Source of the DNA: Planctomycetota bacterium | Lineage (GTDB): Bacteria; Planctomycetota; Phycisphaerae; Phycisphaerales; SM1A02 | Length of the DNA stretch: 64,000 bases | Reading direction: 5' to 3' | Assembly (NCBI GenBank): GCA_003671025.1 | Contig: QWPW01000014.1 | Coordinates: 1 to 64,000, forward strand | In this document: positions 12,027 through 52,993 of the stretch, piece after piece | Layout of the letters: each line of letters begins with the position of its first letter | Position numbering within the stretch: position 1 is the stretch's first letter | The notes under the pieces: model-generated | What the model saw: the letters and a program-made list of their open reading frames with translations, nothing else | Told to the model about the DNA's origin: nothing | Databases searched by the model: none | Program-made: the position numbers and the translations under genes

Positions 12027-14345
12027 ATGACCTTCGCCGCCACCAACTCTGACCGCGACCGCGTACTCGCCGCGACTGACATCCTGTCCGTCATCGGCGA
12101 AGTCATTGCATTGCGGCCCAAGGGAAATGAGCACCAAGGCTTGTGCCCGTTTCACGAAGATGGCTCACCTTCATTTTCGGTGGTGACACACAAGTCGAGC
12201 TACGGCGGCGGCGGCGGCTTCTACAACTGCTTCGCCTGTCCGACGAGTGGCAACGTGATCGACTTCGTCATGGCGTTTCATCGCATGTCCTTTCGCGAGG
12301 CGTTGGTGTATCTCGCCGAGCGCGCCAAGATCGAGCTCACGCCTTTTCGCGGACATCGCGAAGCGCGCGTTCCTGGTGAGCCGACGCCTGAAGACGTCCT
12401 GATCGCCAATGGCCTCGCCCGCAATTTTTACCGTCGAGTGTTTGAAGACACCTCCGCTACCGCAAACACCGCGGGCGTGAAGGCGCGCGCCGAAGTTGAG
12501 CGTCGCGGATTCTCCGAGACCACCATCGAAGAGTTCCAGATCGGTGCGGCGCACGCGGACTACGACCGATTGGCGCGCTGGGTGCAACGCAACCTCGAAC
12601 AGCACACGCCCGACTTTCCATCGTTGCAAACGTTTGTGCTCGCGGGATTGATTCGCGCCTCGCAATCGGGCAGCGGATACCACGATTTCCTGCGCAATCG
12701 TCTGGTGTTTCCCATCTGCGACGATCTCAATCGCGTCATCGCATTCGGTGCGCGCAAGCTCGACGATGATCAGCAACCGAAGTATCTCAACAGCCCAGAG
12801 ACTCCTGTGTTTCACAAGTCTCGCGCGTTGTATGGCATCAATCGCGCCAAGCGAGCAATCATCGCCTCCAAGCAGGCGATCGTCACCGAAGGCTACACCG
12901 ATGTCATCGCGTGTCATCGTGCGGGCGTGACCAATGCGGTCGCAACGTTGGGCACTGCGCTCACGCGCGAACATGCGCGACGGTTGAGTTTGCTCACCAA
13001 GAACGTCGTCTTGCTCTTTGATGGCGATCAAGCCGGACAACGCGCAGCTGATCGCGCTGTGGAGATCTTCTTTTCCGAAGCGATCGACATCAAGATTTGC
13101 GTGCTCCCGGACAATCTCGATCCCGACGATTTGCTGCGCCAAGAGGACGGTGTCAGGCGTTTCCGCGAAGCACTCGACAATGCGGTCGACGCGTTGCCCT
13201 TCATGACCTCACGTCTTCAGGCGCAGCTGAAGGGCGCGGGCATTTCGAATCGCCAAGAGATCATCCAGAAGACGATCACGAAGTTTCTCGACCTCGGCAT
13301 CAACACGATGAGCAGCTTGCGCCGGCAGCTGGTGATGCAGTCGCTCGCCGAGCTCTTCCGCGTCAACGTCTACGACCTCGAAACTGAGCTGCAGCGCGCC
13401 GCCGCGACAATGCGCAAACCGTCGCCGGCAAATGATTCGGCCGTTGGAGCGCCCGAACACGCGCGCAACAGCGTTGTGGAGGTCCCGTTGAACCTGCGAG
13501 GCAACGCTGGACAAACTGCTGGCCCGCGTGGTGCCGGCCCGCTCGGCGTCTCGCGCGGGTCTTTCCGAGCCGCTCAGATCGCCGCCGAGAATCGGCTGCT
13601 CGCCGTGTTATGCCTCAACCCCGCATTGATCGCCGTCGCCGTGCCCATTGAGGGCGACGCACCGCTTGCGCTCAGCGAGGCAATGACCCCGCAAATGTTT
13701 GCGGACGAGGGACATTTCGCAATTTTTGCGGCAATCCGAAACGCGCATGAGGATGGACGCGTACTTACATTTGAACAATTGCTCGGCGACCTTGGCACGC
13801 CAAGCCTCAAACATCTAGCATCAAACCTTTATCGGTTTGGGGTCCAAGCGGTCGATGCCGCTGCAGTTCAAACTGGCGGCACCTCTGCGAGTTCGAATCC
13901 GGCGACCGAGTTGATCGTGAGTTGGAAAGATCTCGAGAGTCTCGCTCGGCGTGAGCGATTTAGGAATCCAGAACTCGGTTTTTTTGGGGGGGCGACCATC
14001 ACGTCGCGTCATGTTTCATCGCCCGAATCAGTAGCACCCGCTTCCGAATCATCTCTCGACGCAGCCGCCGAGGCCGAATCAAGACTGAATTCGCCAAGCG
14101 ACGCATCCGTCGGGTCACCGCTTGGCACGTCAGACAGCTCATCACCGAATACACCCGCCGATCAATCAGACCAAACTTCAGACAATTCAACTCAATTCCC
14201 ACCAGCGGGACCACTCGGTCCTGCCGACGCCTTGGCCCGAATCGCGCAGTCGCGCCTTCGCGGACATGACGCCGCAGCAATGAATCCTAACTTCCGTCGT
14301 CGGCCCTCCGCCCCTTCGGAAACAAGCCGGAGCAACACACCGTGA
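12027..14345 (+). CDS. dnaG: DNA primase DnaG
   Basis: Makes RNA primers at replication forks. The N-terminal CHC2-type zinc domain shows CPFH (near residue 40) and FYNCFAC (near 70), followed by the RNA polymerase core with Toprim motifs EGYTDV (about 287) and DGDQAGQRA (about 331). A helical DnaB-interacting region follows and the C-terminus is a long Ser/Thr/Ala-rich low-complexity tail. At 772 aa it is longer than E. coli DnaG (581), mainly from that tail. The frame is open to 11847, but homology starts at the ATG at 12027. The stop overlaps the rpoD GTG (GTGA), giving the classic dnaG-rpoD coupling without rpsU upstream. Confidence 0.95.
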
Positions 14346-16288
14346 GTATGTCACTCGAGTCACTTGACCTCATTTCGCCCGTTCTGCGCCTGCTCGTGGA
14401 GCAGGGCATTAGCCGTCGATGGATTAGCTACGAAGAGCTCAATACTTGCTTGCCTGACGAGTTCGTTGATCCCGAAAAGATCGACGAATTGCTGGTATTC
14501 ATGGGTGAGCACTCCATCGAGATGGTGGATGAAGTCGAGCTTCGACGTAACGGGTGGAAGCCGTTCATCCAGCCGCTGCAGACCAATCTGAAGTTTCAGC
14601 GCGACGATCCCAAGCGTGGTTCGCGCTCGGACTCTGGTCACTCAGGTCCGTCGCAACCTTCGTCGGCGGCACTCGCTGCGGCCGAGCTTGAGATCAAGAA
14701 GAACAAGCGCAAGAAGAAGGCCGCTGACGGGGAAGCCAAGGGCGAAGAAGAGGGACCAGATCCCGATGACTTCGACGTTGAGGAGGACATTCTCGACGAC
14801 AGCGAAATGCAGGCGGCCGTCGAGAAGGCGCTCGCCGAGCAAGGCTCGAAGCGCATTGACGATCCGATTCGCATGTACCTCACGCAGATGGGCACGATCC
14901 CGCTGCTGACACGCGAAGAAGAAATCCGTCTGGCCAAGAAGATCGAAACCACGCGCATGATCTTCCGCCGCAAGGTGCTCGAGAGCGATTACGCGGCGGG
15001 CGAAGCGGTCAAGATCCTGCGCGACGTGCATGCTCAGAAGTTGCCCTTTGATCGCACCATGCGCATCAGCACGGCCGAGCCGCACGCGAAGCAGAAGATT
15101 GAGCAACGCATTCCCGCGAACCTCCCCACGATCGAGCGCTTGCTCAAGAGCAATCTCGCGGCGTGGGAGCAACTCGAAGCGGGCGGTTTGTCGGTGACTG
15201 CGAAGACGCAGCTGCAGCGCGAAATCAGTTTGCGTCGCCGTCGCATCGGCACGCTGCTTGAGGAATGCTGTCTGCGCACGGGACGCATCATTCCGCTTCA
15301 TCGCAAGCTCTTGGGCATCGTGTCCAAGATGCGTGAGATGCAGCGCAACCTCATCAAGGCTGACAAACATCCGGATCGTTACGACCCCGAAGATGTCTAT
15401 GTCATGCAAGAAGAGTTCGATGGACTGCGCAACTTGGTGCTTGAACCAATGGACGAGTTTGAGCGTCGCATGCGCGACATCATGCGCGTCTTCGGCGAGT
15501 ACGAACAAGCCAAGCGCGATCTTTCCGGCGGCAACTTGCGTCTGGTGGTTTCGATTGCCAAGAAGTATCGCAATCGTGGACTTCCCTTCCTCGACATCAT
15601 CCAGGAAGGCAACACTGGTTTGATGCGCGCGGTCGACAAGTACGAATACAAGCGCGGCTACAAATTCTCGACCTACGCCACGTGGTGGATTCGTCAAGCG
15701 ATCACCCGTGCCATCGCGGATCACGCACGCACGATTCGCGTGCCCGTGCACATGATCGAGACGATGTCCAAACTGCGCAATATCCAGAAGGCGTTGCTGC
15801 AAGAGTTGGGTCGCGAGCCGACCATCGAAGAGATCGCCATCAAGGCGAAGATGCCCATCGAAGAGACGCGTCGCGTGATGAAGATCTCGCGCCATCCGAT
15901 CTCGTTGGATCGTCCGGTGGGCGAGAGCGAAGATTCACACTTCGGCGATTTCATCGAAGACGAGCGTCAAGCAAGTCCATCCGATGCGGCGACGAGCGAC
16001 ATGCTTCGTCAACGCATCAACGATGTGCTTAAGACGCTGACCTATCGCGAGCGTGAGATTCTCAAGCTGCGCTACGGAATTGGCGACGGGTACACCTACA
16101 CGCTTGAGGAAGTCGGTCGCATCTTCAAGGTCACGCGCGAGCGCGTGCGCCAAGTGGAGTCGAAGGCGATTCGCAAGTTGCAGCACCCTGTGCGTCGTCA
16201 GCGTTTGGCCAGCTTTTTGCCCGGCCATCTCGCCGATCTCGAAAGCGAACCAGAAGCCGAGCAGGAAATCGCCAGCGCCGATGAATGA
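14342..16288 (+). CDS. rpoD: Primary sigma factor RpoD (sigma70/SigA)
   Basis: Housekeeping sigma factor, 648 aa. Region 1.1-like N-terminus, then an acidic and Lys-rich linker (about residues 95-160). Region 1.2 contains [22 protein letters not shown] non-conserved region lies between 1.2 and 2. Regions 2.1-2.4 include [12 protein letters not shown], the [19 protein letters not shown] segment and [13 protein letters not shown]. Regions 3 and 4.2 ([20 protein letters not shown]) complete the protein. Region 2.4/4.2 identity agrees with the TTGNNN/TATACT-like promoters seen here. Starts with GTG overlapping the dnaG stop; ATG 14348 is the alternative. Ends at a strong terminator. Confidence 0.97.
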
Positions 16289-16345
16289 GCGCGTGCGCGA
16301 GTGAGCGCGAACAGATCGCGACAAACCTAGCGCAAGACAAAAATC

Positions 16346-16385
16346 AAGACGGCTCGCGGAACTTCCGCGAGCCGTCTTTGTTTTT
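16346..16385. terminator. Bidirectional terminator between rpoD and WXG100-like gene
   Basis: 15-bp perfect stem (16346-16360 with 16364-16378), 3-nt loop, followed by TTTGTTTTT on the plus strand and preceded by an A-rich run (16338-16343). It can therefore serve rpoD and possibly the convergent gene at 16448. Confidence 0.88.
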
Positions 16386-16447
16386 CGACTGGATTGGTTC
16401 GCGATCCCGTCGCCGGTCGCGGACAACCACTCGGTCATCGCGTGCGA

Positions 16448-16720
16448 TCAACGCTGCTTGAGGTATTCCTCGAGCCGCTCTGCCTTGCGCACGAGGAACG
16501 GAACATGCTGCTCCGAGACGCGGATGAACTTGACCAGCACCTTCATGGTCTGATCAAACTCTTCGGCGAACTTCTGTTGTTCTTGATCTTTCCAAGTGCC
16601 TTGGAGGGATCCCAGCTTCGCGCCCATCGCGCTCACTTGCCCTTGAAGTTCGGCATTGAAGCGATGAAGGTCCTGTGCAAAGCGGCGGAGTTCGAGTGGG
16701 TCTGCAATTGCCTTAGCCAT
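16448..16720 (-). CDS. WXG100-like (ESAT-6-like) small helical protein
   Basis: 90-aa all-helical protein resembling the WXG100 superfamily of small type VII secretion substrates. Helix one spans about residues 8-38. A turn has GTWKDQ with Trp at about 43, followed by helix two with QQKFAEEF and a downstream Leu/Phe pattern. The classical W-x-G is replaced by W-K-D, which some distant members tolerate. No signal peptide. A TACACT box ends 6 nt before the ATG, so the mRNA may be near-leaderless. Lies 91 bp downstream of the 75-aa gene on the same strand. No EccC/FtsK-type ATPase is in this window, so a secretion role is inference only. Confidence 0.6.
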   Translation of the reverse strand: MAKAIADPLELRRFAQDLHRFNAELQGQVSAMGAKLGSLQGTWKDQEQQKFAEEFDQTMKVLVKFIRVSEQHVPFLVRKAERLEEYLKQR

Positions 16721-16811
16721 GCTGCAAGTGTACGGGATCGTCTTGACGCGATCGAGACGACTCGATGAGCAGCACTGCTCGATCTACACGCGGCGAAAAT
16801 CTGCGTTGGCT

Positions 16812-17039
16812 CTATCGTTGGCTATCGTCGCTGCACTCGCTGCGTACACGATTGAGTACGTCGTTCATCGAATCGAGTGCATTCATCGCCGCGCGTAACT
16901 GCTTGTCGATCGGCAGCACCGAGCGCTCTTCGAACGTGCGCGACAAATCATCGCGCCACACTTGCGAGACGTTGAACCACGCCTTGAGCATGTCGCGGTG
17001 CGCCGCATTCATGCGCGCCTTGGCGTCGGGCAAACTCAT
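16812..17039 (-). CDS. Small helical protein, possible divergent WXG-like partner
   Basis: 75 aa, soluble, predicted helical hairpin; unrecognised family. The centre has VWRDDLSRTFEER, which resembles the W-(K/R)-D-x(4-5)-F-x-E pattern of the neighbouring 90-aa WXG100-like protein, so the two could be remote paralogues forming a heterodimer. Its ATG overlaps the stop of the upstream 248-aa gene (ATGA), so the pair is translationally coupled. The coupling supports reality despite the small size. Confidence 0.6.
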   Translation of the reverse strand: MSLPDAKARMNAAHRDMLKAWFNVSQVWRDDLSRTFEERSVLPIDKQLRAAMNALDSMNDVLNRVRSECSDDSQR

Positions 17040-17782
17040 GGTGTTACTCCTCCGTCTTGCGTTCCTGGCGCGTTGGCGTCGGCTTGCGCGGGAGCGTTGT
17101 GCTGTGGGAGCGCGTGCTCTGTCTTCACCGCGCGCAGCGCCGCGTCTCGTGCTGCCGTGAGAACACGTTCGTCTGCTTGTAAGACTTCGGCGGCGGCGAG
17201 ATCCTGCAGTTCTTCGGCGGCGGTACGTAACTCTCCTGAGCGACGCATCGAAGCGACGTTGCCACGCGCGCGATCAAGCTGCTCGCCCAGCGTGACGTTT
17301 GGTGTCGCGAGATACGCCTCCAACGCGAGCGCCATGTTGCGCAACAACTGAATCGCCTCAGGCAAATCGCGATCGATCAAACTCGCCATGGGCGACATAT
17401 GGCTCTTGTACAGCGAGACCTCGCGCTCGAGCGTCATCAACCAACGCCGCGTCTTGTCGAAGCGCTCGCGCGCATCTTCGACTCGCGCCTTCGCTCGCCC
17501 CACCGCTTTCTTCTCATCGATGGTCGATGGCCGCTGCCCCGTGCCCATCGTTTGCATCTCTTTGCGAAAGAGCGCGGCCTTGGTCGAGGTGAGTTCTTCG
17601 TCGAGGCGAGGAACCGCACGTTTCCAATGCAGCATGCGATCGCGCTCGAGCCAAACAAATGTCGACTTCACATCGGAGTCAGCCTCGGCGACTGCCACGC
17701 CGAGCTCCTCGCGAAAGCGAATCAGCGCGCGACGGAACTCGTCGAGTGCGCCGATGTCTGTGATGTTTGCCGGACCGCTCAT
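17036..17782 (-). CDS. Hypothetical coiled-coil protein linked to WXG-like cluster
   Basis: 248 aa, no signal peptide or membrane segment. Residues about 10-200 are rich in Glu/Arg/Lys/Ala with heptad-like leucines, so mostly alpha-helical and probably coiled coil. A tryptophan-bearing hairpin (FVWLERDRMLHWKR) lies near residue 42. The C-terminal 40 residues are Ala/Pro/Gln-rich and disordered. Its ATG shares one base with the stop of the upstream MFS gene (TGATG), and its own stop overlaps the next gene (ATGA). Function not recognised. The coupling suggests it is made in step with the transporter and the 75-aa protein. Confidence 0.65.
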   Translation of the reverse strand: MSGPANITDIGALDEFRRALIRFREELGVAVAEADSDVKSTFVWLERDRMLHWKRAVPRLDEELTSTKAALFRKEMQTMGTGQRPSTIDEKKAVGRAKARVEDARERFDKTRRWLMTLEREVSLYKSHMSPMASLIDRDLPEAIQLLRNMALALEAYLATPNVTLGEQLDRARGNVASMRRSGELRTAAEELQDLAAAEVLQADERVLTAARDAALRAVKTEHALPQHNAPAQADANAPGTQDGGVTP

Positions 17783-19092
17783 CAGCTAGACGCAATGGCT
17801 CGCTTACTGGGATAGAACAGCAACAGCAGCACGAAGCACGCGATCGACATATACATCGGAACGGAAAACAGTTTCGTGTAATCCGTGGTGGCGGCCGCGC
17901 CTTCGCCAACCTTGGACCATTCACCGACGTACGCGGTCGCGAAGATGCTGCCCACGATGGTGCCGATTCCCACGATCACGAGATTGAAGTAGTTCTGCGC
18001 AGTAGCGCGGATGTCCGCAGTGGTGTTCTCGTCGACGATCATGAACGCGACAAAGATGAAGCAACCAAAGCACACTCCGTGCAGCGCGATGCCCGCGATT
18101 ACGAAGCCCAGCTCAGGCATGTAAGCCCACAGCGCCATGCGCAGCGCGTACGCCGCGAGACCGATCAAGAGCAGATGTTTGCGCGTGAGCACTTTGGTGA
18201 GGAACGGCATCATGGCCAACACCACGATCTCGCTCATCTGGCCGATGGTCATCAATCCGCCGCCGACGCCGAAGATCTCTTTGATGTTCGCGGAGAACCA
18301 GGACTCTTCGCCCGCTTGAATCCCGCTGATGAAGCCGTCCGCTTGCACGAAGTAGAACTGATGAATCATGCTCACGGGAACGGCGATGAGAAACAGCGTG
18401 ATCAACGGCTGCTTCGCGATCTCCATGAACCCCTCAAGCCACGCCGTCTTCTCCGTAGCACTCTTTGTCGGTGGAGTGTTGGGCAGCGTGAAACAGTAGA
18501 AGCCCATCAGCACGCCAAGCACTGCGCTGATGTTGAACGCGACGGCGCGACCGGCGTTTTGCTCAGCGAGCACAGCCGCTTCGTCAACGCCAGTTGGTGT
18601 GTAGAAACGGAACAAGATCTGTCCGACGGTGATACCCACCGCGATCCAACCAATCGTTCCCCACAAACGCACGGGACCAAAGTCGGCATCGCGATTCTTG
18701 ATGTGCGCGAACGTGAGCGAGTTGGTGAGCGCCATCGTCGGCGCATACACCAATCCGTAGATCGCTGCGAGTCCGAGGAAAGTCTCGAACTGCGCGGTCT
18801 GGCCCATCAGATAGACCAACAGCGCTCCAACCAAATGACTCACGCCGAGAATCTTCTGCGTGGCAAAGGAGCGATCCGCAAGTTGTCCCGCGAGGAACGG
18901 CCCAAAGATCGCGCCCAACGCGCCCGCCGAAAAGCAGTAACCGATCTGCGCACCGGTGAATCCCAAGTGACCACTCAAGAACAAGTACAGCACCGGAAGC
19001 CAAGCTCCCCAGATCGCATACTGCAAGAACATCATCATGCTCAGGCGTGCGCGGACAAAAGGGACGTTTGGAATCGCGAGTGTGTCGCTCAT
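17782..19092 (-). CDS. MFS transporter, nucleoside:H+ symporter (NupG) type
   Basis: Inner-membrane transporter of 436 aa with 12 predicted hydrophobic segments, resembling the NupG/XapB nucleoside:H+ symporter group. The N-terminus MMMFLQYAIWGAWLPVL and the loop GQLADRSFATQ are typical. Substrate specificity (nucleosides or another small solute) cannot be fixed from sequence. The start at 19092 is supported by a good SD: GAGGAG about 6 nt upstream. First gene of a tightly coupled minus-strand run with the three small helical proteins; no nucleoside-catabolism gene is nearby. Confidence 0.85.
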   Translation of the reverse strand: MSDTLAIPNVPFVRARLSMMMFLQYAIWGAWLPVLYLFLSGHLGFTGAQIGYCFSAGALGAIFGPFLAGQLADRSFATQKILGVSHLVGALLVYLMGQTAQFETFLGLAAIYGLVYAPTMALTNSLTFAHIKNRDADFGPVRLWGTIGWIAVGITVGQILFRFYTPTGVDEAAVLAEQNAGRAVAFNISAVLGVLMGFYCFTLPNTPPTKSATEKTAWLEGFMEIAKQPLITLFLIAVPVSMIHQFYFVQADGFISGIQAGEESWFSANIKEIFGVGGGLMTIGQMSEIVVLAMMPFLTKVLTRKHLLLIGLAAYALRMALWAYMPELGFVIAGIALHGVCFGCFIFVAFMIVDENTTADIRATAQNYFNLVIVGIGTIVGSIFATAYVGEWSKVGEGAAATTDYTKLFSVPMYMSIACFVLLLLFYPSKRAIASS

Positions 19093-19247: not shown

Positions 19248-20504
19248 ATGAACCCTCGTCGATTGACTCGTCAAATCACTGTCGGCGACGCGCGCGTCGG
19301 CCGCGTCAAAATTGGTGGCGATGCCCGCGTGAGCGTGCAAACCATGACCGCGGGTTACACCCATGACATCGATGCCTGTGTGCGCGAGATCGAGCGTTAC
19401 GCCGCCGCGGGCGTGGACATCGTGCGCGTGGCCGTGCCCGAGCGCAAAGACACCGAGGCGTTGCACCACATTCTTCCGCAGGTTTCGGTGCCCATCGTGG
19501 CCGACGTGCACTTTCACTTTCAGCGTGCGCTCGAAGCCATCGATGCGGGCGTGCACAAGATTCGCCTCAACCCCGGAAACATTGCCGACCGCGATCAAGT
19601 CAATCAAGTGATCGATGCGTGCAAAGATCGCGGGATTCCCATTCGCATCGGCGTGAACGAAGGCTCGATCATCGAGCGCAAAGACAAACAGCGACGCATG
19701 GAAGAGCTGGGCAAGTTCTTTGCGGAACACAAGTCAGGACACATGCTCGCGCTGATGATTGCCAAGCTCGAGGAGTACCTCGACATCTTTGACGCGCGCG
19801 ACTTTCACGATGTTTCCATCAGCGCCAAGTCGATGGACGCGAGCATGGTCATCGACGTGTACACCGAGATTTCCAAGCGTTTCGACTACCCGCTCCATCT
19901 GGGCGTCACGCATGCGGGCCCGCGGGAGACCGGCGCAATTCGCTCGATCGTCGCACTGGGCACACTGTTGGCCAACGGCATCGGCGACACGTTGCGACTC
20001 TCGTATGCCAGCGACCACATCGATGAAGTGAAAGATGGACTCGAGCTGCTTTACTCGCTGGGCAAGCGCACGCGCAAAGGTATTGATCTCATCGCGTGTC
20101 CAACTTGCGGGCGCATCCAGGTCGATCTGTTCACACTGGTCAAAGAGGTCGAACGCAAACTGCTCCCGCAAATCGAACTGCCCATGAAAGTCGCGGTGAT
20201 GGGTTGCATCGTGAATGGTCCTGGCGAAGCCGAAGGCGCCGATGTTGCAGTCTTCGCGGGCGATCGCCGCGGAATCATCTATGTGCAAGGTCAACGCGTC
20301 GCCAATGTGCCCGAGCCAGAGATTCTTGATCGACTGCTGCAAGAGTGCCTCGCGTTTGAAGCGAAGGTCAAACGCGGCGAAGCCAAGTTGGGCGAGAAGG
20401 TTGTCGAAATCGTTCCACCGGACCCCATCGGCGCACTCGGTTCGGGTGCGGACAAAATTCGCGCGGGGTTTGTCGAACAAGTCACCATCGGCAAGACTTC
20501 TTGA
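19248..20504 (+). CDS. ispG: IspG/GcpE, HMBPP synthase
   Basis: Iron-sulfur enzyme of the MEP isoprenoid pathway; it reductively converts methylerythritol cyclodiphosphate to HMBPP. The 418-aa protein has the TIM-barrel N-terminus (SVQTMTAGYTHD, VADVHFHF, HKIRLNPGNI) and the C-terminal cluster-binding cysteines in ACPTCGR (about 283-286) and GCIVNGPGEA (about 320). The size suits the two-domain bacterial form. No SD, consistent with the near-leaderless promoter. The hydrolase gene begins 15 bp after its stop. dxs and a prenyl synthase, also isoprenoid genes, lie 5-6 kb downstream. Confidence 0.96.
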   Translation: MNPRRLTRQITVGDARVGRVKIGGDARVSVQTMTAGYTHDIDACVREIERYAAAGVDIVRVAVPERKDTEALHHILPQVSVPIVADVHFHFQRALEAIDAGVHKIRLNPGNIADRDQVNQVIDACKDRGIPIRIGVNEGSIIERKDKQRRMEELGKFFAEHKSGHMLALMIAKLEEYLDIFDARDFHDVSISAKSMDASMVIDVYTEISKRFDYPLHLGVTHAGPRETGAIRSIVALGTLLANGIGDTLRLSYASDHIDEVKDGLELLYSLGKRTRKGIDLIACPTCGRIQVDLFTLVKEVERKLLPQIELPMKVAVMGCIVNGPGEAEGADVAVFAGDRRGIIYVQGQRVANVPEPEILDRLLQECLAFEAKVKRGEAKLGEKVVEIVPPDPIGALGSGADKIRAGFVEQVTIGKTS

Positions 20505-44531: not shown

Positions 44532-48356
<3,825 letters not shown>

Positions 48357-48360
48357 TCAC

Positions 48361-48398
48361 TGCTGATTCCACGCGCACTCTTGCGCGTGGAATCAGCA
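48361..48398 (+). other. 17-bp perfect hairpin between rpoB and rpoC
   Basis: Arms 48361-48377 and 48382-48398 are fully complementary with a 4-nt loop (CTCT). It lies 4 bp after the rpoB stop. No T-run follows, so it is more likely an RNA processing or stability element than a terminator. The remaining gap to rpoC (48399-48550) shows no gene. Confidence 0.75.
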
Positions 48399-48550
48399 TC
48401 ACGATGCGCTCGATGCGCACCGATCACAGCGAACAACGGCAACGTTTCCGCTCTCACTGAATTTGGTCAGTCAAGTCAGCACACGAAACTGCACACGAAT
48501 CACGTCCTACGGCACCCGCGCTTTGCGGGGCCATTTGGAAGGCCACTGCG

Positions 48551-51500
48551 ATGTCTGAAAGCGTTTACGACCGCGTCAACGATTACGGCTCCGTCAAGAT
48601 CACTCTCGCGAGCCCCAATGACATCCGAAGCTGGAGCTTCGGCGAGGTCAAGAAGCCTGAGACCATCAACTACCGCACCTACCGCCCGGAGCGGGATGGT
48701 CTTTTCTGCGAGCGCATTTTCGGTCCTGAGAAGGACTACGAGTGTGGCTGCGGAAAATACAAGGGCACGAAATACAAGGGCATCATCTGCGATCGTTGTG
48801 GCGTGAAGGTCACGCACAGCCGCGTGCGCCGCAAGCGCATGGGCCACATCAATCTCGCTGCGCCGATCGTGCACATCTGGTTCTTCAAGGCGATGCCGTC
48901 GCGTCTGGGCAACTTGCTCGCGATGAAGACGTCGGACCTCGAGAAGATCATCTACTTCCAGGATTACGTGGTCACCGATCCCGGTTCGACCGAGCTTGAA
49001 TACAAGCAAGTTCTCACCGAAGACGAATACCGCGCCGAAGTCGACAAGTACGGCACGGCGCAGTTCACCGCGATGATGGGCGCCGAGGCCGTTCGCGAAC
49101 TGCTGCAACAACTCGATTTGCCTAGCCTGAGCGCCGAAATTCGCGAAGACTTGGGTGCGACCAAGAGCAAGCAGCGCCAGAAGGATCTCTCCAAGCGCCT
49201 GAAGATCGTCGAGCAAATCCGCGGTTCGCAGAACGAACCCAAGTGGATGGTGCTCGATGTGATCCCCGTGATTCCGCCGGACCTGCGTCCGTTGGTGCTG
49301 CTCGAGAGCGGCAACTTCGCGACCAGCGATCTCAACGATCTCTATCGCCGCATCATCAACCGCAACAACCGTCTCAAAAAGCTCATGGACCTCAACGCGC
49401 CCGAGGTCATCGTGCGCAACGAGAAGCGCATGCTGCAACAAGCGGTCGATGCGTTGTTCGACAACGGCCGCTGCCGTCGTCCGGTGCTTGGTTCGTCCAA
49501 CCGTCCGCTCAAGTCGATCACCGACATGATCAAGGGCAAGCAGGGTCGCTTCCGCGAGAACCTGCTGGGCAAGCGCGTCGATTACTCGGCACGTTCGGTC
49601 ATCGTCGTTGGTCCCGAGCTCAAGATCTGGCAGTGTGGTCTTCCGAAAAAGATCGCGCTCGAGTTGTTCCAGCCCTTCATCATCCGCAAGCTCAAAGAGC
49701 ACGGACTCGCCGACACCATCAAGAGCGCTAAGCGCATGTTGGAGCGACGCGAGACTGAAGTGTGGGACATTCTTGAGCAGGTGATTCAGAATCACCCCGT
49801 CATGCTCAACCGCGCTCCGACCTTGCACCGCATGGGTATTCAGGCGTTTGAGCCGGTGCTCGTCGAAGGCAACGCGATCAAGATTCATCCTCTTGTGTGC
49901 ACGGGCTACAACGCCGACTTTGACGGTGACCAGATGGCCGTCCATCTTCCACTCTCGGTGGAAGCACAGGCGGAAGCGCATGTGTTGATGATGTCGACAC
50001 ACAACATCTTCAGCCCGGCCAACGGCAACCCCATCGTCAGTCCTTCGCAGGACATCGTCATGGGCGTGTACTTCCTCACCACCAGTCATGGTGATGCGCC
50101 GAAGAACCCGGAGTCGCTGCGTCGCTTCAAGGATCTTGAAGAGGCACTGCACTCGTTCAATCTCCCGCAGACGGATGAGCGCAGAATTTCCTTCCACGAT
50201 CCGATTCAAGTGCGTTTGGCGCGCTTCGCTGAAGTGGTGCAGGATGCCAAGAAGGCTCCTGAGCCGATGCCCGCGAACCGTCGCATCGTCACCACCCTTG
50301 GACGTTTGCTCTTTAACGAGATCCTTCCTGACGGCATGCCGTTCTACAACTGCGCGCTGGGCAAGAAGGGCGCGGCACGCGTCATCGACGACACCTTTGC
50401 ACGCAAGGGCAAGTCGCACACCATCGATCTTCTCGATGCGATGAAGCAGACCGGCTTCCGCTACTCGACGGTCTCTGGCCTTTCGTTTGCCATCACCGAT
50501 CTGCGCATCCCACTCGAGAAGAAAGAACTCCTCGACAAAACGCAGAAGAAGGTTGATCGCGTTGAGAAGGCCTATCAAGGCGGCGCGATCACCGAGCGTG
50601 AACGACACAATCAGTTGCTTGACTTGTGGCAGCAGTGCCGCGCAGAAGTGACTGTGAAACTGGTGGATGCACTGAAGCGAGATCGCCGCGACGCCAATGG
50701 CGCGGAGACCTCGATCGAGAAGGAAGAGGGCACCAAGTACCTCAACCCGGTGTACCTCTTCAGCGACTCGGGCGCCCGTGGTAATGTCAGTCAAATGCAG
50801 CAACTCGCGGGAATGCGCGGCCTCATGGCCAAGCCCAGCGGAGAGATCATCGAGACGCCGATCCGCGCGAACTTCCGCGAGGGTCTGTCCATGCTCGAGT
50901 ACTTCTCTTCGACCCACGGTGCTCGTAAGGGTCTCGCCGATACCGCGCTCAAGACCGCGGACTCCGGTTACCTCACGCGCAAGCTGTGCGATGTCGCACA
51001 GTCAGTGGTCGTGCTCGAAGACGAGTGCGGCACGCCCCATGGCATTCCAAAGAAGGCCATTTACAAGGGCGAAGAGGTCGATGTTCCGCTGCGCGACGTG
51101 ATCCGTGGTCGCACCAGCGTGGAAACCATCATCAATCCGATGACCGAAGAAGTCATCGTCAAGTGCAATCAGATCATCACTGATCCGATTGCGCTCAAGA
51201 TTGAATTGTTGGGTCTCACCAGCATCCACGTGCGTTCACCACTCACCTGCTCCACGGCACGCGGCGTCTGCGCCAAGTGCTACGGACAGGACATGTCGAC
51301 CGGCAAATCTGTCGAGATCGGCATGGCGGTTGGAATCATTGCGGCGCAAAGCATCGGCGAGCCTGGTACCCAGCTCACCATGCGTACCTTCCATACTGGT
51401 GGTATTGCGGCGCGCGGAATTCTCGACAACAGCTACAAGGCTCAGTCAGCAGGTTCCGTGCAACTGCGCGACTGTATGGAAGTCGAAGTCAAGCATGACG

Positions 51501-52993
51501 ATGGCAGCAAGACCGTGGTCGCGCTCAAGCGCAACGGCGAGATCTTGGTTGTCGATCAGCATGGACGCGAGTTGGAGAAGTTCAAGGTTCCCTACGGCGC
51601 ACAGTTGTTCGCGCGCACGGGTGATGTGGTCAAGCGTGGCGTCGTTCTCTGCGAATGGCAGCCCCATGCGACTCCGATTTTGGCTGAGAAGTCGGGCATC
51701 GTCCGCTTCAAGGACATGGTCGAAGACGTCACCTTCCGTATCGACGCCAAGAAGGGCGCGGGCGAAGTCGCCGAAATGATCGTCATCGAGCACACTGGTG
51801 AGAAGCATCCGCAGATCACCATCGAAGACGGCAACGGCAACATCCTCGACTTCCACCATCTTCCTGCGAAGGCGCGTATCGAAGTCAAGGACGGTTCCAA
51901 GATCGCCCAAGGCCAGATGTTGGCGCGTCAACCAAAGGAAGCTGCTCGTTCGGCAGACATCGTCGGTGGTCTCCCCCGCGTGACTGAGATCTTCGAAGCG
52001 CGTATTCCCAAGGAACCCGCCGTCATGGCGGAAATCTCGGGACGCGTTGAGCTGCACTCCGACAAGCGCAAGGGCAAGATGACCATTCGCATTCTCAGTG
52101 ATGCTGGTCTTGAGCACGATCATCACGTGCCGCAAGGCAAGGCGCTGTTGGTGCACACCGGCGACCGCATCGAAGCGGGCGATCCACTCACCGAGGGACC
52201 GCACATTCCTGCAGATATTCTGCGCATCAAGGGTGAAGACGCGCTGTACGTCTACATGCTTGACGAAGTGCAGAACGTGTATCGCGCGCAGGGCGTGCCC
52301 ATCTCGGACAAGCACATCGAGGTCATCCTCCGTCAGATGCTTTCCAAGGTGCGCGTGTCTAATCCCGGCGACACCGAGATCCTGCCCAACGATGTGATTG
52401 ACAAGTTCCTGTTCCGCGATGTGAACGAGTCGATCGCACGCAAGATGCGCATCGAAGACGCGGGCGGCACCAGCCTCCCCGTTGGTTCGCTCGTCGACAA
52501 GATGGAGATTCGCGAGGCCAACGCGCTCGCGGAAGCTGAAGGCAAGTCTGGATGCAAAGCCAAGAAGCCACGTCCCGCCACTGCGAAGACGCTGCTCTTG
52601 GGAATCACCAAGGCTTCGCTGCAAGCGGAAAGCTTCCTCTCCGGCGCGTCGTTCCAAGAGACCACCAAGGTGCTCACCGAAGCTGCGCTCAAGGGCGCAG
52701 TCGATCATCTCCTCGGTCTCAAGGAAAACGTTCTGCTCGGTCACCTCATCCCCGCCGGCACTGGATTCGAAGCCTACTCCAAGGCCAAGGTCAAGCGTCT
52801 CGTCGATGTGCCTGAGTACGACGATGAAGCAGCCGCGGCGATGTACGACGAAGCGGCGATGGAGGCCGAGTCGCTCGGCGCCGAGCGTCGCGGTAGTCCG
52901 GTGACGACGGTTCGTGATCGTCTGGCCAGCGCCATCGCAGCAGGTCAAGAGACTGTTGCCAGCGGCGAAGCGGACGAACTCATTCCGCTGTGA
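48551..52993 (+). CDS. rpoC: RNA polymerase beta' subunit
   Basis: 1480 aa, within the usual bacterial range (1200-1500). The N-terminal zinc finger has CGCGKYKG...CDRCGVK (about residue 64). The catalytic Mg motif [10 protein letters not shown] is at residue 454-463. A second zinc-binding group is seen around [12 protein letters not shown]. The bridge helix/trigger loop region includes [24 protein letters not shown]. Follows rpoB in the normal order. No rpsL-rpsG-fusA genes follow; a terminator-like hairpin and ffh do instead. Confidence 0.98.

What the first reader, a model, noticed from the sequence alone, without database searches (positions are those of the whole stretch)
16448..19092. 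Nucleoside-type transporter coupled to WXG100-like small proteins
The MFS gene, a 248-aa coiled-coil protein and a 75-aa protein overlap by 1 and 4 bp. A 90-aa WXG100-like protein follows 91 bp later on the same strand. The 75-aa and 90-aa proteins share a W-(K/R)-D...F-x-E pattern and may be remote paralogues. I know of no described system joining a nucleoside transporter with WXG100-type proteins. Whether a type VII secretion ATPase exists elsewhere in the genome decides how to read this.
Basis: partly seen in the sequence, partly recalled or inferred. Interest (0 to 1): 0.62.

Follow-up and report, generated by a model that had tools for sequence, protein, structure and literature searches.

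The report
Split minimal type-VII-like export module
Three small helical-hairpin genes next to a nucleoside-type transporter gene turn out to be three parts of a four-part, type-VII-like protein-export module whose motor gene sits elsewhere in the same genome; the transporter is most likely a bystander that came to lie beside them in one genus.

Summary
The 90-aa protein passes the Pfam WXG100 cut-off; the 75-aa protein is its distant paralogue, modelled as the same two-helix hairpin; the 248-aa protein is modelled as a long helical hairpin. In relatives these genes form an operon, WXG90-CC-P75-ATPase: of 80 named loci (mostly planctomycete, 11 with verrucomicrobial names), 79 have CC, 78 P75 and 73 the adjacent ATPase, an EccC/EssC homologue of about 1300 aa. 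In 294 planctomycete genomes WXG90 and the ATPase occur together in 40, the ATPase alone in 1. The transporter adjoins the trio only in this genus; in 37 other genomes of the family with both genes, none is seen beside it. Four plasmid relatives carry longer proteins in the CC position, one with a WHH nuclease beside a SUKH immunity gene. Best reading: a dispersed, toxin-less, stand-alone type-VII-like system, of a kind mentioned only in passing in the papers seen. Export itself is inferred, not shown.

The parts
16448..16720 (-). WXG90: 90-aa WXG100 protein with W-K-D at the hairpin turn; EsxA/HP0062-like
   Evidence: PF06013 39.4 bits, over cut-off; best solved relatives HP0062 of H. pylori 3fx7 E 1.6e-12, then EsxB and EsxA; 38-94% identity to the rows of alignment A1, 92-97% in the genus
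16812..17039 (-). P75: short WXG100-like helical hairpin, W28-x-D30 at the turn, Cys69 invariant in A6
   Evidence: AlphaFold2 model pLDDT 93.5, helices 3-27 and 31-73; profile hits to WXG90 59/80 vs 0/80 reversed; conserved next to CC in 78 of 80 named loci
17036..17782 (-). CC: 248-aa long helical hairpin, proposed carrier/trafficking protein without a recognised cargo domain
   Evidence: AlphaFold2 model mean pLDDT 86.5, helices 10-76 and 88-159; conserved in 79 of 80 named loci; longer proteins in this position on four plasmids
17782..19092 (-). MFS transporter of the Nuc_H_symport family, genus-specific neighbour, probably not part of the export module
   Evidence: PF03825 E 2.7e-84; TIGR00889 nucleoside permease 224.5 bits, below its cut-off of 446.1, so substrate not established; adjacency seen only in the genus
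14342..16288 (+). rpoD, anchor of the locus: many relatives carry the export operon beside dnaG-rpoD
   Evidence: sigma-70 domains; rpoD within the fetched stretch in 36 of 80 named loci
19248..20504 (+). ispG (GcpE), divergent neighbour of the MFS gene
   Evidence: PF04551 E 7.9e-118; kept beside MFS in genus loci

Best explanation
The three small genes are the non-motor half of a four-gene, type-VII-like protein-export module, present in 40 of 294 sampled Planctomycetota and in some Verrucomicrobiota. Its parts are: (1) WXG90, a WXG100 hairpin dimer that keys the substrate complex to the motor; (2) P75, a short WXG100-fold adaptor comparable to the Lap partners of LXG toxins; (3) CC, a long helical hairpin that acts as the carrier (the trafficking half of a toxin in mobile relatives); and (4) an EccC/EssC-type ATPase with membrane segments and one active ATPase domain, which would hexamerise in the inner membrane and pull the hairpin complex through. 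In this genus the module is split: the ATPase is on another contig behind topA, and the trio lies, reordered, between rpoD and a nucleoside-type MFS gene that now shares its strand. Shown: homology of WXG90, P75 and the ATPase, hairpin models, gene order, co-occurrence, conservation, ATPase presence in the same genome. Inferred: dimer/complex formation, binding to the ATPase, export, and the carrier role of CC.
For: WXG100 match over cut-off. Operon WXG90-CC-P75-ATPase in 73 of 80 named loci; of the 7 exceptions 4 end at a contig edge and 3 (L110, L126, L160) have no ATPase within the fetched stretch, and all 7 genomes hold it. Co-occurrence in one draw of 294 planctomycete genomes: WXG90 40, ATPase 41, all 40 shared; CC 39 of the 40 (Fisher 1e-48, not corrected for kinship). 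Co-occurrence survives separation: five genomes have WXG90, CC and ATPase at three places, two have the ATPase apart, and two members of the window's genus (the two checked) have it apart. The ATPase is nearer EccC/YukB than FtsK (4nh0 1.6e-36, EccC5 1.1e-29, YukB 1.5e-28, FtsK 1.1e-9), has exactly one Walker A (22 of 22) and, by a plain hydropathy count, two or more N-terminal membrane segments in 57 of 62 ORFs over 1200 aa of the named loci and 16 of the 22 in A4. Toxin link: on a Helicobacter sp. plasmid the order is WXG - protein with a C-terminal WHH nuclease - SUKH immunity - 77 aa - ATPase.
Against: No export, complex or expression data. Homology of CC to WXG100 proteins is weak (hhalign 36% and 4%; CC profile 5 of 80 WXG90 vs 0 reversed, but WXG90 profile 0 of 59 CC). 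P75-WXG90 hhalign is 87% with one P75 set and 26% with the other. The CC profile does not hit the Helicobacter nuclease protein, and the small proteins in the P75 position of three of the four plasmids hit the P75 profile at E 0.097 to 9.7 only. Known T7SS partners were not found in this genome: YukD/EsaB 0 in G000; EccB 0 of 10, but that search rang in no control genome. In A4 six of 22 ATPases show fewer than two membrane segments. How cargo would cross the outer membrane is unaddressed, and most CC proteins have no recognisable cargo domain.
Confidence: 0.68

Rival explanations
1. A real transporter-WXG100 partnership: the MFS protein and the hairpin proteins work together, for example in nucleoside uptake or regulation.
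For: MFS and CC overlap by 1 bp in the window and MFS stays directly upstream of CC in the genus (13 of 14 fetched loci, the other cut by a contig end).
Against: 37 family members outside the genus hold both genes without visible adjacency (29 on different contigs, 8 on one contig 63-255 kb apart; adjacency across a contig end, as conceivable in G376, cannot be excluded); outside the family only 2 of 105 sampled genomes of the order (G365, G434) hold both, against 29 with WXG90 and 17 with the MFS. The trio is instead tied to the ATPase.
Confidence: 0.07
2. The module is not a secretion system: the one-active-domain ATPase and the hairpin proteins form an intracellular coiled-coil machine, for example a defence or envelope-organising complex that resembles type VII parts.
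For: Similar genes sit in the CoCoNuT III-A defence operons (PMC11090510, section 10); the Caballeronia plasmid copy lies among VWA, CARF, phosphatase and kinase genes. Other T7SS parts were not found (inconclusive).
Against: Membrane segments in 57 of 62 ATPase ORFs over 1200 aa, which the CoCoNuT copies are said to lack; a nuclease plus immunity gene beside the WXG and ATPase genes of a plasmid relative fits export. Whether defence genes recur near the chromosomal copies was not tested: neighbour clusters were not annotated beyond the four genes.
Confidence: 0.2
3. Relic of a lost system, kept by chance after the ATPase moved away.
For: Trio and ATPase are unlinked here.
Against: Long open ATPase frames in the same genome and in a second genus member; purifying selection on WXG90, P75 and CC; CC in 15 of 16 genus genomes, the other 78% complete.
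Confidence: 0.05

Closest known systems
Stand-alone 'solo WXG plus YueA-like ATPase' systems (footnote 6 to a table in Zhang et al. 2012, PMC3482391, passages seen; Anantharaman et al. 2012, not read, seen only as cited)
   Same: WXG100 protein with a distinct three-domain FtsK/HerA ATPase of which only the middle domain is active; planctomycetes and verrucomicrobia are named there.
   Different: The passages seen mention neither the CC and P75 genes nor a fixed four-gene order, splitting or membrane segments; the systems are called mobile there, whereas the copies here are mostly a conserved operon, often beside rpoD.
CoCoNuT type III-A EssC-like extension (PMC11090510, passages and section 10 read)
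   Same: EssC-like ATPase with only D2 predicted active and a long N-terminal coiled coil, two WXG100-fold proteins (one without WxG), and a coiled-coil protein in the same operon.
   Different: There the ATPase is said to lack membrane helices and the coiled-coil protein is fused to a nuclease, inside a defence operon; here most ATPases show membrane segments, the window's CC has no recognised nuclease domain, and the neighbours checked in the window are dnaG, rpoD, ispG and a hydrolase-like gene.
H. pylori HP0062/HP0066 'WXG100 secretion system' (PMC4978471 and PMC3397514, passages seen)
   Same: HP0062 is the best solved relative of WXG90 (E 1.6e-12) and has WRD at the hairpin bend; described with an FtsK/SpoIIIE-domain protein.
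   Different: HP0066 and other neighbours were not compared here; whether P75 and CC exist there is untested.
T7SSa/T7SSb and T7SSc-j (PMC11217815, abstract and sections 4, 7, 16 read)
   Same: EccC/EssC-type ATPase plus WXG100 protein; long substrate hairpins with small helical partner proteins (LXG/Lap, PE/PPE).
   Different: Planctomycetes and verrucomicrobia rather than Actinomycetota/Bacillota; no YukD found in the window's genome (EccB search inconclusive); two further hairpin proteins encoded with the WXG100 protein; one Walker A site.

Membership tests
WXG100 superfamily (90-aa protein) | Profile match to PF06013 and two-helix hairpin with W-x-G-type turn | tested here: met
   39.4 bits vs cut-off 27.3; profile matches HP0062, EsxB, EsxA chains over most of its length. 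The turn is W-[KRQ]-D, not W-x-G; WXG90 itself was not modelled.
WXG100 superfamily (75-aa protein) | Profile match to PF06013 over cut-off | tested here: not met
   Window protein none; 3 of 60 family members at E<=0.01, best 4.3e-4.
WXG100 superfamily (75-aa protein) | Hairpin fold with the W motif at the turn and homology to WXG100 proteins | tested here: met
   Model pLDDT 93.5, W28-x-D30 between helices; 59/80 vs 0/80 reversed. Fold matches alone (Z about 8 to Esx chains and HP0062) are within the range of unrelated hairpins; Foldseek E-values exceed 1.
WXG100 superfamily (248-aa protein) | Homology or fold match to WXG100/LXG/PPE proteins | tested here: inconclusive
   hhalign 36% and 4%; CC profile 5/80 WXG90 vs 0/80 reversed, WXG90 profile 0/59 CC; listed fold matches are generic coiled coils.
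Type VII secretion system | EccC/EssC-type membrane ATPase in the genome | tested here: met
   G000:C16 about 47791-51840; 44% to the L031 ATPase over its residues 257-1380 (the match counted there runs past the ORF's own stop); hydrophobic segments 234-260 and 267-300, one Walker A; nearest solved chains EccC/YukB.
Type VII secretion system | WXG100 protein linked to or co-inherited with that ATPase | tested here: met
   40 of 40 WXG90 genomes have the ATPase among 294.
Type VII secretion system | Ubiquitin-like EsaB/YukD | tested here: not met
   PF08817: none in the window's genome; 3 of 10 planctomycete genomes have a match; control B. subtilis rang.
Type VII secretion system (T7SSa) | EccB | tested here: inconclusive
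   0 of 10 genomes, but no control genome rang.
Type VII secretion system (T7SSb) | EssA, EssB, EsaA | not tested
   No genome search left.
Type VII secretion system | ATPase-dependent export of the WXG100 protein | not testable with these tools
   Needs an experiment.
Nucleoside permease (TIGR00889) | Score over the curated cut-off | tested here: not met
   224.5 vs 446.1 bits; it is a Nuc_H_symport/MFS protein (PF03825 283.9 vs 25.9).

The most novel reading that the evidence does not exclude
A type-VII-class secretion system of planctomycetes and verrucomicrobia that runs on one motor and three different helical-hairpin proteins, fixed in many chromosomes and unburdened by a toxin: a domesticated descendant (or the chromosomal stock) of plasmid toxin-export cassettes, in which the toxin's trafficking half was kept for a housekeeping job at the cell envelope, and which still works as a dispersed system when its genes are scattered.
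Probability: 0.35. Interest if true: 0.72.

Novelty: new variant of a known kind. Interest (0 to 1): 0.52.

Why it matters
Type VII secretion is studied mainly in Actinomycetota and Bacillota; a widespread minimal version in planctomycetes and verrucomicrobia would show which parts are indispensable (one motor and hairpin partners) and how a toxin-delivery cassette can become, or come from, a housekeeping system. The conserved four-gene set gives a ready target in cultured bacteria such as Chthoniobacter flavus Ellin428, whose locus holds all four genes in order (L135).

Tried and rejected
Transporter-WXG100 coupling: rejected as a general system because adjacency is seen only in the genus. 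RNA genes in the roughly 1.5-kb rpoD-WXG90 gap of relatives: none at Rfam gathering scores in the four loci scanned apart from two tRNAs elsewhere; in L185 the gap holds an ORF that I recognise by eye as aldehyde-dehydrogenase-like. 'The ATPase is just FtsK': rejected, since the genome has a separate 953-aa FtsK-like frame scoring only E 5.4e-9. CC as a recognised Pfam domain: only scattered hits, none shared by more than 2 of 59 members. CC fold search: generic coiled coils. First iterative HMMs drifted between the three families and are not used as evidence for homology; families were rebuilt with best-profile assignment. Homology of P75 to CC: none found (1 of 59 and 0 of 60). Loci L067, L068 and L069 (weak PF06013 hits) hold no member of any of the three families and were dropped from the counts. 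A1 holds 37 of the 38 WXG90 proteins (L033 left out); A2 30 of 31 P75 (L046 left out); A3 27 of 32 CC (five with unclear starts left out); A4 the window genome's ATPase and 21 of the 28 loci (partial or over-long frames left out). A5 holds 58 of the 79 CC and A6 59 of the 78 P75 proteins of the named loci plus the window's own, to keep starts clean and thin near-copies. Of 98 plasmid records with an ATPase match I looked at the best four. Literature: (eight of ten searches) showed no description of the four-gene set in planctomycetes; the library holds open-licence papers only, and Sutcliffe 2011 is not held.
Full report
What is there. Four minus-strand ORFs stand exactly as described: an MFS gene (17782-19092), a 248-aa gene (CC, 17036-17782), a 75-aa gene (P75, 16812-17039) and a 90-aa gene (WXG90, 16448-16720), with a 1-bp and a 4-bp overlap and a 91-bp gap. 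They lie between rpoD (14342-16288, +) and ispG (19248-20504, +). WXG90 passes the PF06013 cut-off (39.4 vs 27.3 bits); P75 and CC have no Pfam family above cut-off; the MFS protein is Nuc_H_symport (E 2.7e-84), but reaches only 224.5 of the required 446.1 bits for the nucleoside-permease model.

The trio is widespread. PF06013 matches 41 of 294 planctomycete genomes. After removing three loci with no family member (L067-L069), the fetched surroundings (10-20 kb, one of 3.5 kb) plus the window gave 38 WXG90 loci; 32 also hold a CC and 31 a P75 homologue close by. In those 80, CC is found in 79, P75 in 78 and the large ATPase downstream in 73, in the order WXG90-CC-P75-ATPase on one strand. Of the seven without an adjacent ATPase, four end at a contig edge and three (L110, L126, L160) have none in the fetched stretch; all seven genomes contain it.

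The missing motor. The ATPase (about 1300 aa) has a single GxTGSGKS Walker A (22 of 22 aligned). By a plain hydropathy count, 57 of 62 ORFs over 1200 aa in the named loci, and 16 of the 22 in A4, show at least two N-terminal membrane segments. Its closest solved relatives are EccC of Thermomonospora (4nh0, 1.6e-36), EccC5 and YukB; FtsK is far behind (1.1e-9). The window's own genome holds it on contig C16 (about 47791-51840; E 3.3e-238 to the L031 protein), downstream of topA, as does a second member of the genus. For these two genomes the matches that count stops run past the end of the open frame. A separate FtsK-like frame is also present.

Co-inheritance without linkage. In one draw of 294 genomes searched three times, WXG90 was found in 40, the ATPase in 41 and CC in 39; every WXG90 genome has the ATPase (the extra one is G219, 80% complete in 880 contigs), and only G107 of the 40 lacks CC. 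Fisher's exact p is 1e-48, not corrected for common descent. More telling, five genomes of family f30 (G024, G087, G105, G137, G194) carry WXG90, CC and the ATPase at three separate places, two (G152, G216) carry the ATPase apart, and the two checked members of the window's genus carry it apart: the parts stay together in genomes although not on the chromosome.

What the small proteins look like. P75 is modelled as a hairpin (helices 3-27 and 31-73, pLDDT 93.5) with W28 and D30 at the turn and Cys69, all three invariant in A6. Its profile finds 59 of 80 WXG90 proteins at E<0.01 against none of the reversed or shuffled sets; the converse is 9 of 60 against none. hhalign gives 87% with one P75 set and 26% with the other. 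Of the top 11 structural matches 10 are Esx proteins or HP0062 (Z 8.0-8.5), but unrelated hairpins reach 7.5-8.3, so the fold match alone proves little. WXG90's nearest solved relative is HP0062 of H. pylori (1.6e-12), ahead of EsxB (4.6e-8) and EsxA (3e-5); HP0062 has WRD at its bend (PMC3397514, passage), like the W-[KRQ]-D here. CC is modelled as a long hairpin (helices 10-76 and 88-159, mean pLDDT 86.5). A relation of CC to WXG100 proteins is hinted at by a P-x-x-L-x-x-F near the start of both consensus sequences (the window's CC lacks the proline) but is unproven: the CC profile hits 5 of 80 WXG90 proteins against 0 reversed, while the WXG90 profile hits 0 of 59 CC proteins.

Why a carrier. 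Of 98 plasmid records with an ATPase match I looked at the best four. On a Helicobacter sp. plasmid the order is WXG, a 340-aa protein with a helical-looking N-terminus (judged by eye) and a C-terminal WHH/colicin-type nuclease (PF14414 E 1.1e-11), a SUKH-type immunity protein (PF09346 E 1.6e-6), a 77-aa protein and the ATPase. On the Caballeronia, Rhodococcus and Deinococcus plasmids, proteins of 436, 314 and 326 aa near the WXG and ATPase genes hit the CC profile at E 4.5e-4, 1.6e-9 and 9.2e-5 (Z=1000), the best reversed control being 0.044; these three have no Pfam family above cut-off, and the gene order differs on the last two. The Helicobacter protein does not hit the CC profile, and the 73-77-aa proteins of three plasmids hit the P75 profile only at E 0.097 to 9.7, so those equivalences rest on position; the Deinococcus 144-aa protein hits it at 6.8e-6. 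Most chromosomal CC proteins scanned show no shared extra domain, but the 9 long ones (342-430 aa; Phycisphaerae/Phycisphaerales titles and one unnamed bacterium) carry a C-terminal extension, which matches Imm33-like PF24719 in 7 at E<=0.01 and in 4 over the cut-off.

The transporter. In 14 fetched genus loci MFS lies directly upstream of CC on the same strand in 13, the fourteenth ending at a contig edge; all four genes are seen in order in 10. In a draw of 151 genomes of the order, 40 family members outside the genus have WXG90 and 37 of these have the MFS (two of them, G324 and G417, by 40% matches that may be paralogues); 29 have the two on different contigs and 8 on one contig about 63-255 kb apart. 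Adjacency across a contig end cannot be excluded in every fragmented assembly (G376 is a candidate). Outside the family, of 105 genomes 29 have WXG90, 17 the MFS and 2 both. rpoD occurs in the fetched stretch of 36 of 80 named loci: upstream in 30, mostly about 1.5 kb or only about 0.1 kb from WXG90, and downstream of the ATPase on the other strand in 6. I infer that the rpoD site is ancestral and that in this genus the trio was reordered there while the ATPase moved and the MFS came to lie upstream. L126, which holds the trio near a related MFS gene on the other strand and has its ATPase elsewhere, may be an intermediate.

What is known. Zhang et al. 2012 note in a table footnote that planctomycetes, verrucomicrobia and others have solo WXG domains with a distinct YueA-like ATPase whose middle domain alone is active (PMC3482391, passages). 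The CoCoNuT paper describes such an ATPase with two WXG100-fold proteins and a coiled-coil nuclease in defence operons and cites Anantharaman et al. 2012 (not read) for stand-alone forms (PMC11090510, section 10). Poulsen et al. 2014 found WXG100 proteins almost only in Actinobacteria and Firmicutes (PMC3935865, passages); a passage of PMC6471051 credits Sutcliffe 2011 (not held) with finding them in Verrucomicrobiae and other phyla. Garrett et al. 2024 classify T7SSa-j in Gram-positive phyla (PMC11217815, sections read). None of the text seen describes the four-gene set, its spread or its splitting; eight searches of an open-licence library cannot exclude that it is in print.

Verdict. It works like a type VII system as far as anatomy shows; full membership is not claimed, since YukD was not found in this genome, other partners were not properly tested, and export is undemonstrated.

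Noticed in passing
L130, L138, L143, L144, L146, L147, L150, L158, L159 (CC genes): Long CC proteins (342-430 aa) carry a C-terminal extension; 7 of 9 match the Imm33-like domain PF24719 at E<=0.01, 4 over its cut-off.
   Followed up: partly
L206 3746-8148 (Helicobacter sp. NHP19-012 plasmid): A WHH/colicin-type nuclease gene, a SUKH immunity gene and a 77-aa gene lie between a WXG gene and the EssC-like ATPase gene.
   Followed up: partly
window 16289-16447; L185 4962-6419: In the genus locus L185 an aldehyde-dehydrogenase-like ORF (judged by eye) fills the rpoD-WXG90 gap and abuts WXG90; the window has only about 160 bp there, so the gene seems lost or moved in this species. A similar ORF borders WXG90 in L126.
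   Followed up: partly
P75 family, window residue Cys69 (16833-16835): A cysteine near the C-terminus is invariant in the 60-sequence alignment A6 and in at least 90% of A2; its role is unknown.
   Followed up: no
L200, L201, L202: YukD/EsaB-like matches over the Pfam cut-off in 3 of 10 planctomycete genomes that carry the module, on other contigs than it; possible extra component.
   Followed up: no
L042 (G107): One large planctomycete genome has WXG90 followed by the ATPase with neither CC nor P75 recognised between them.
   Followed up: no
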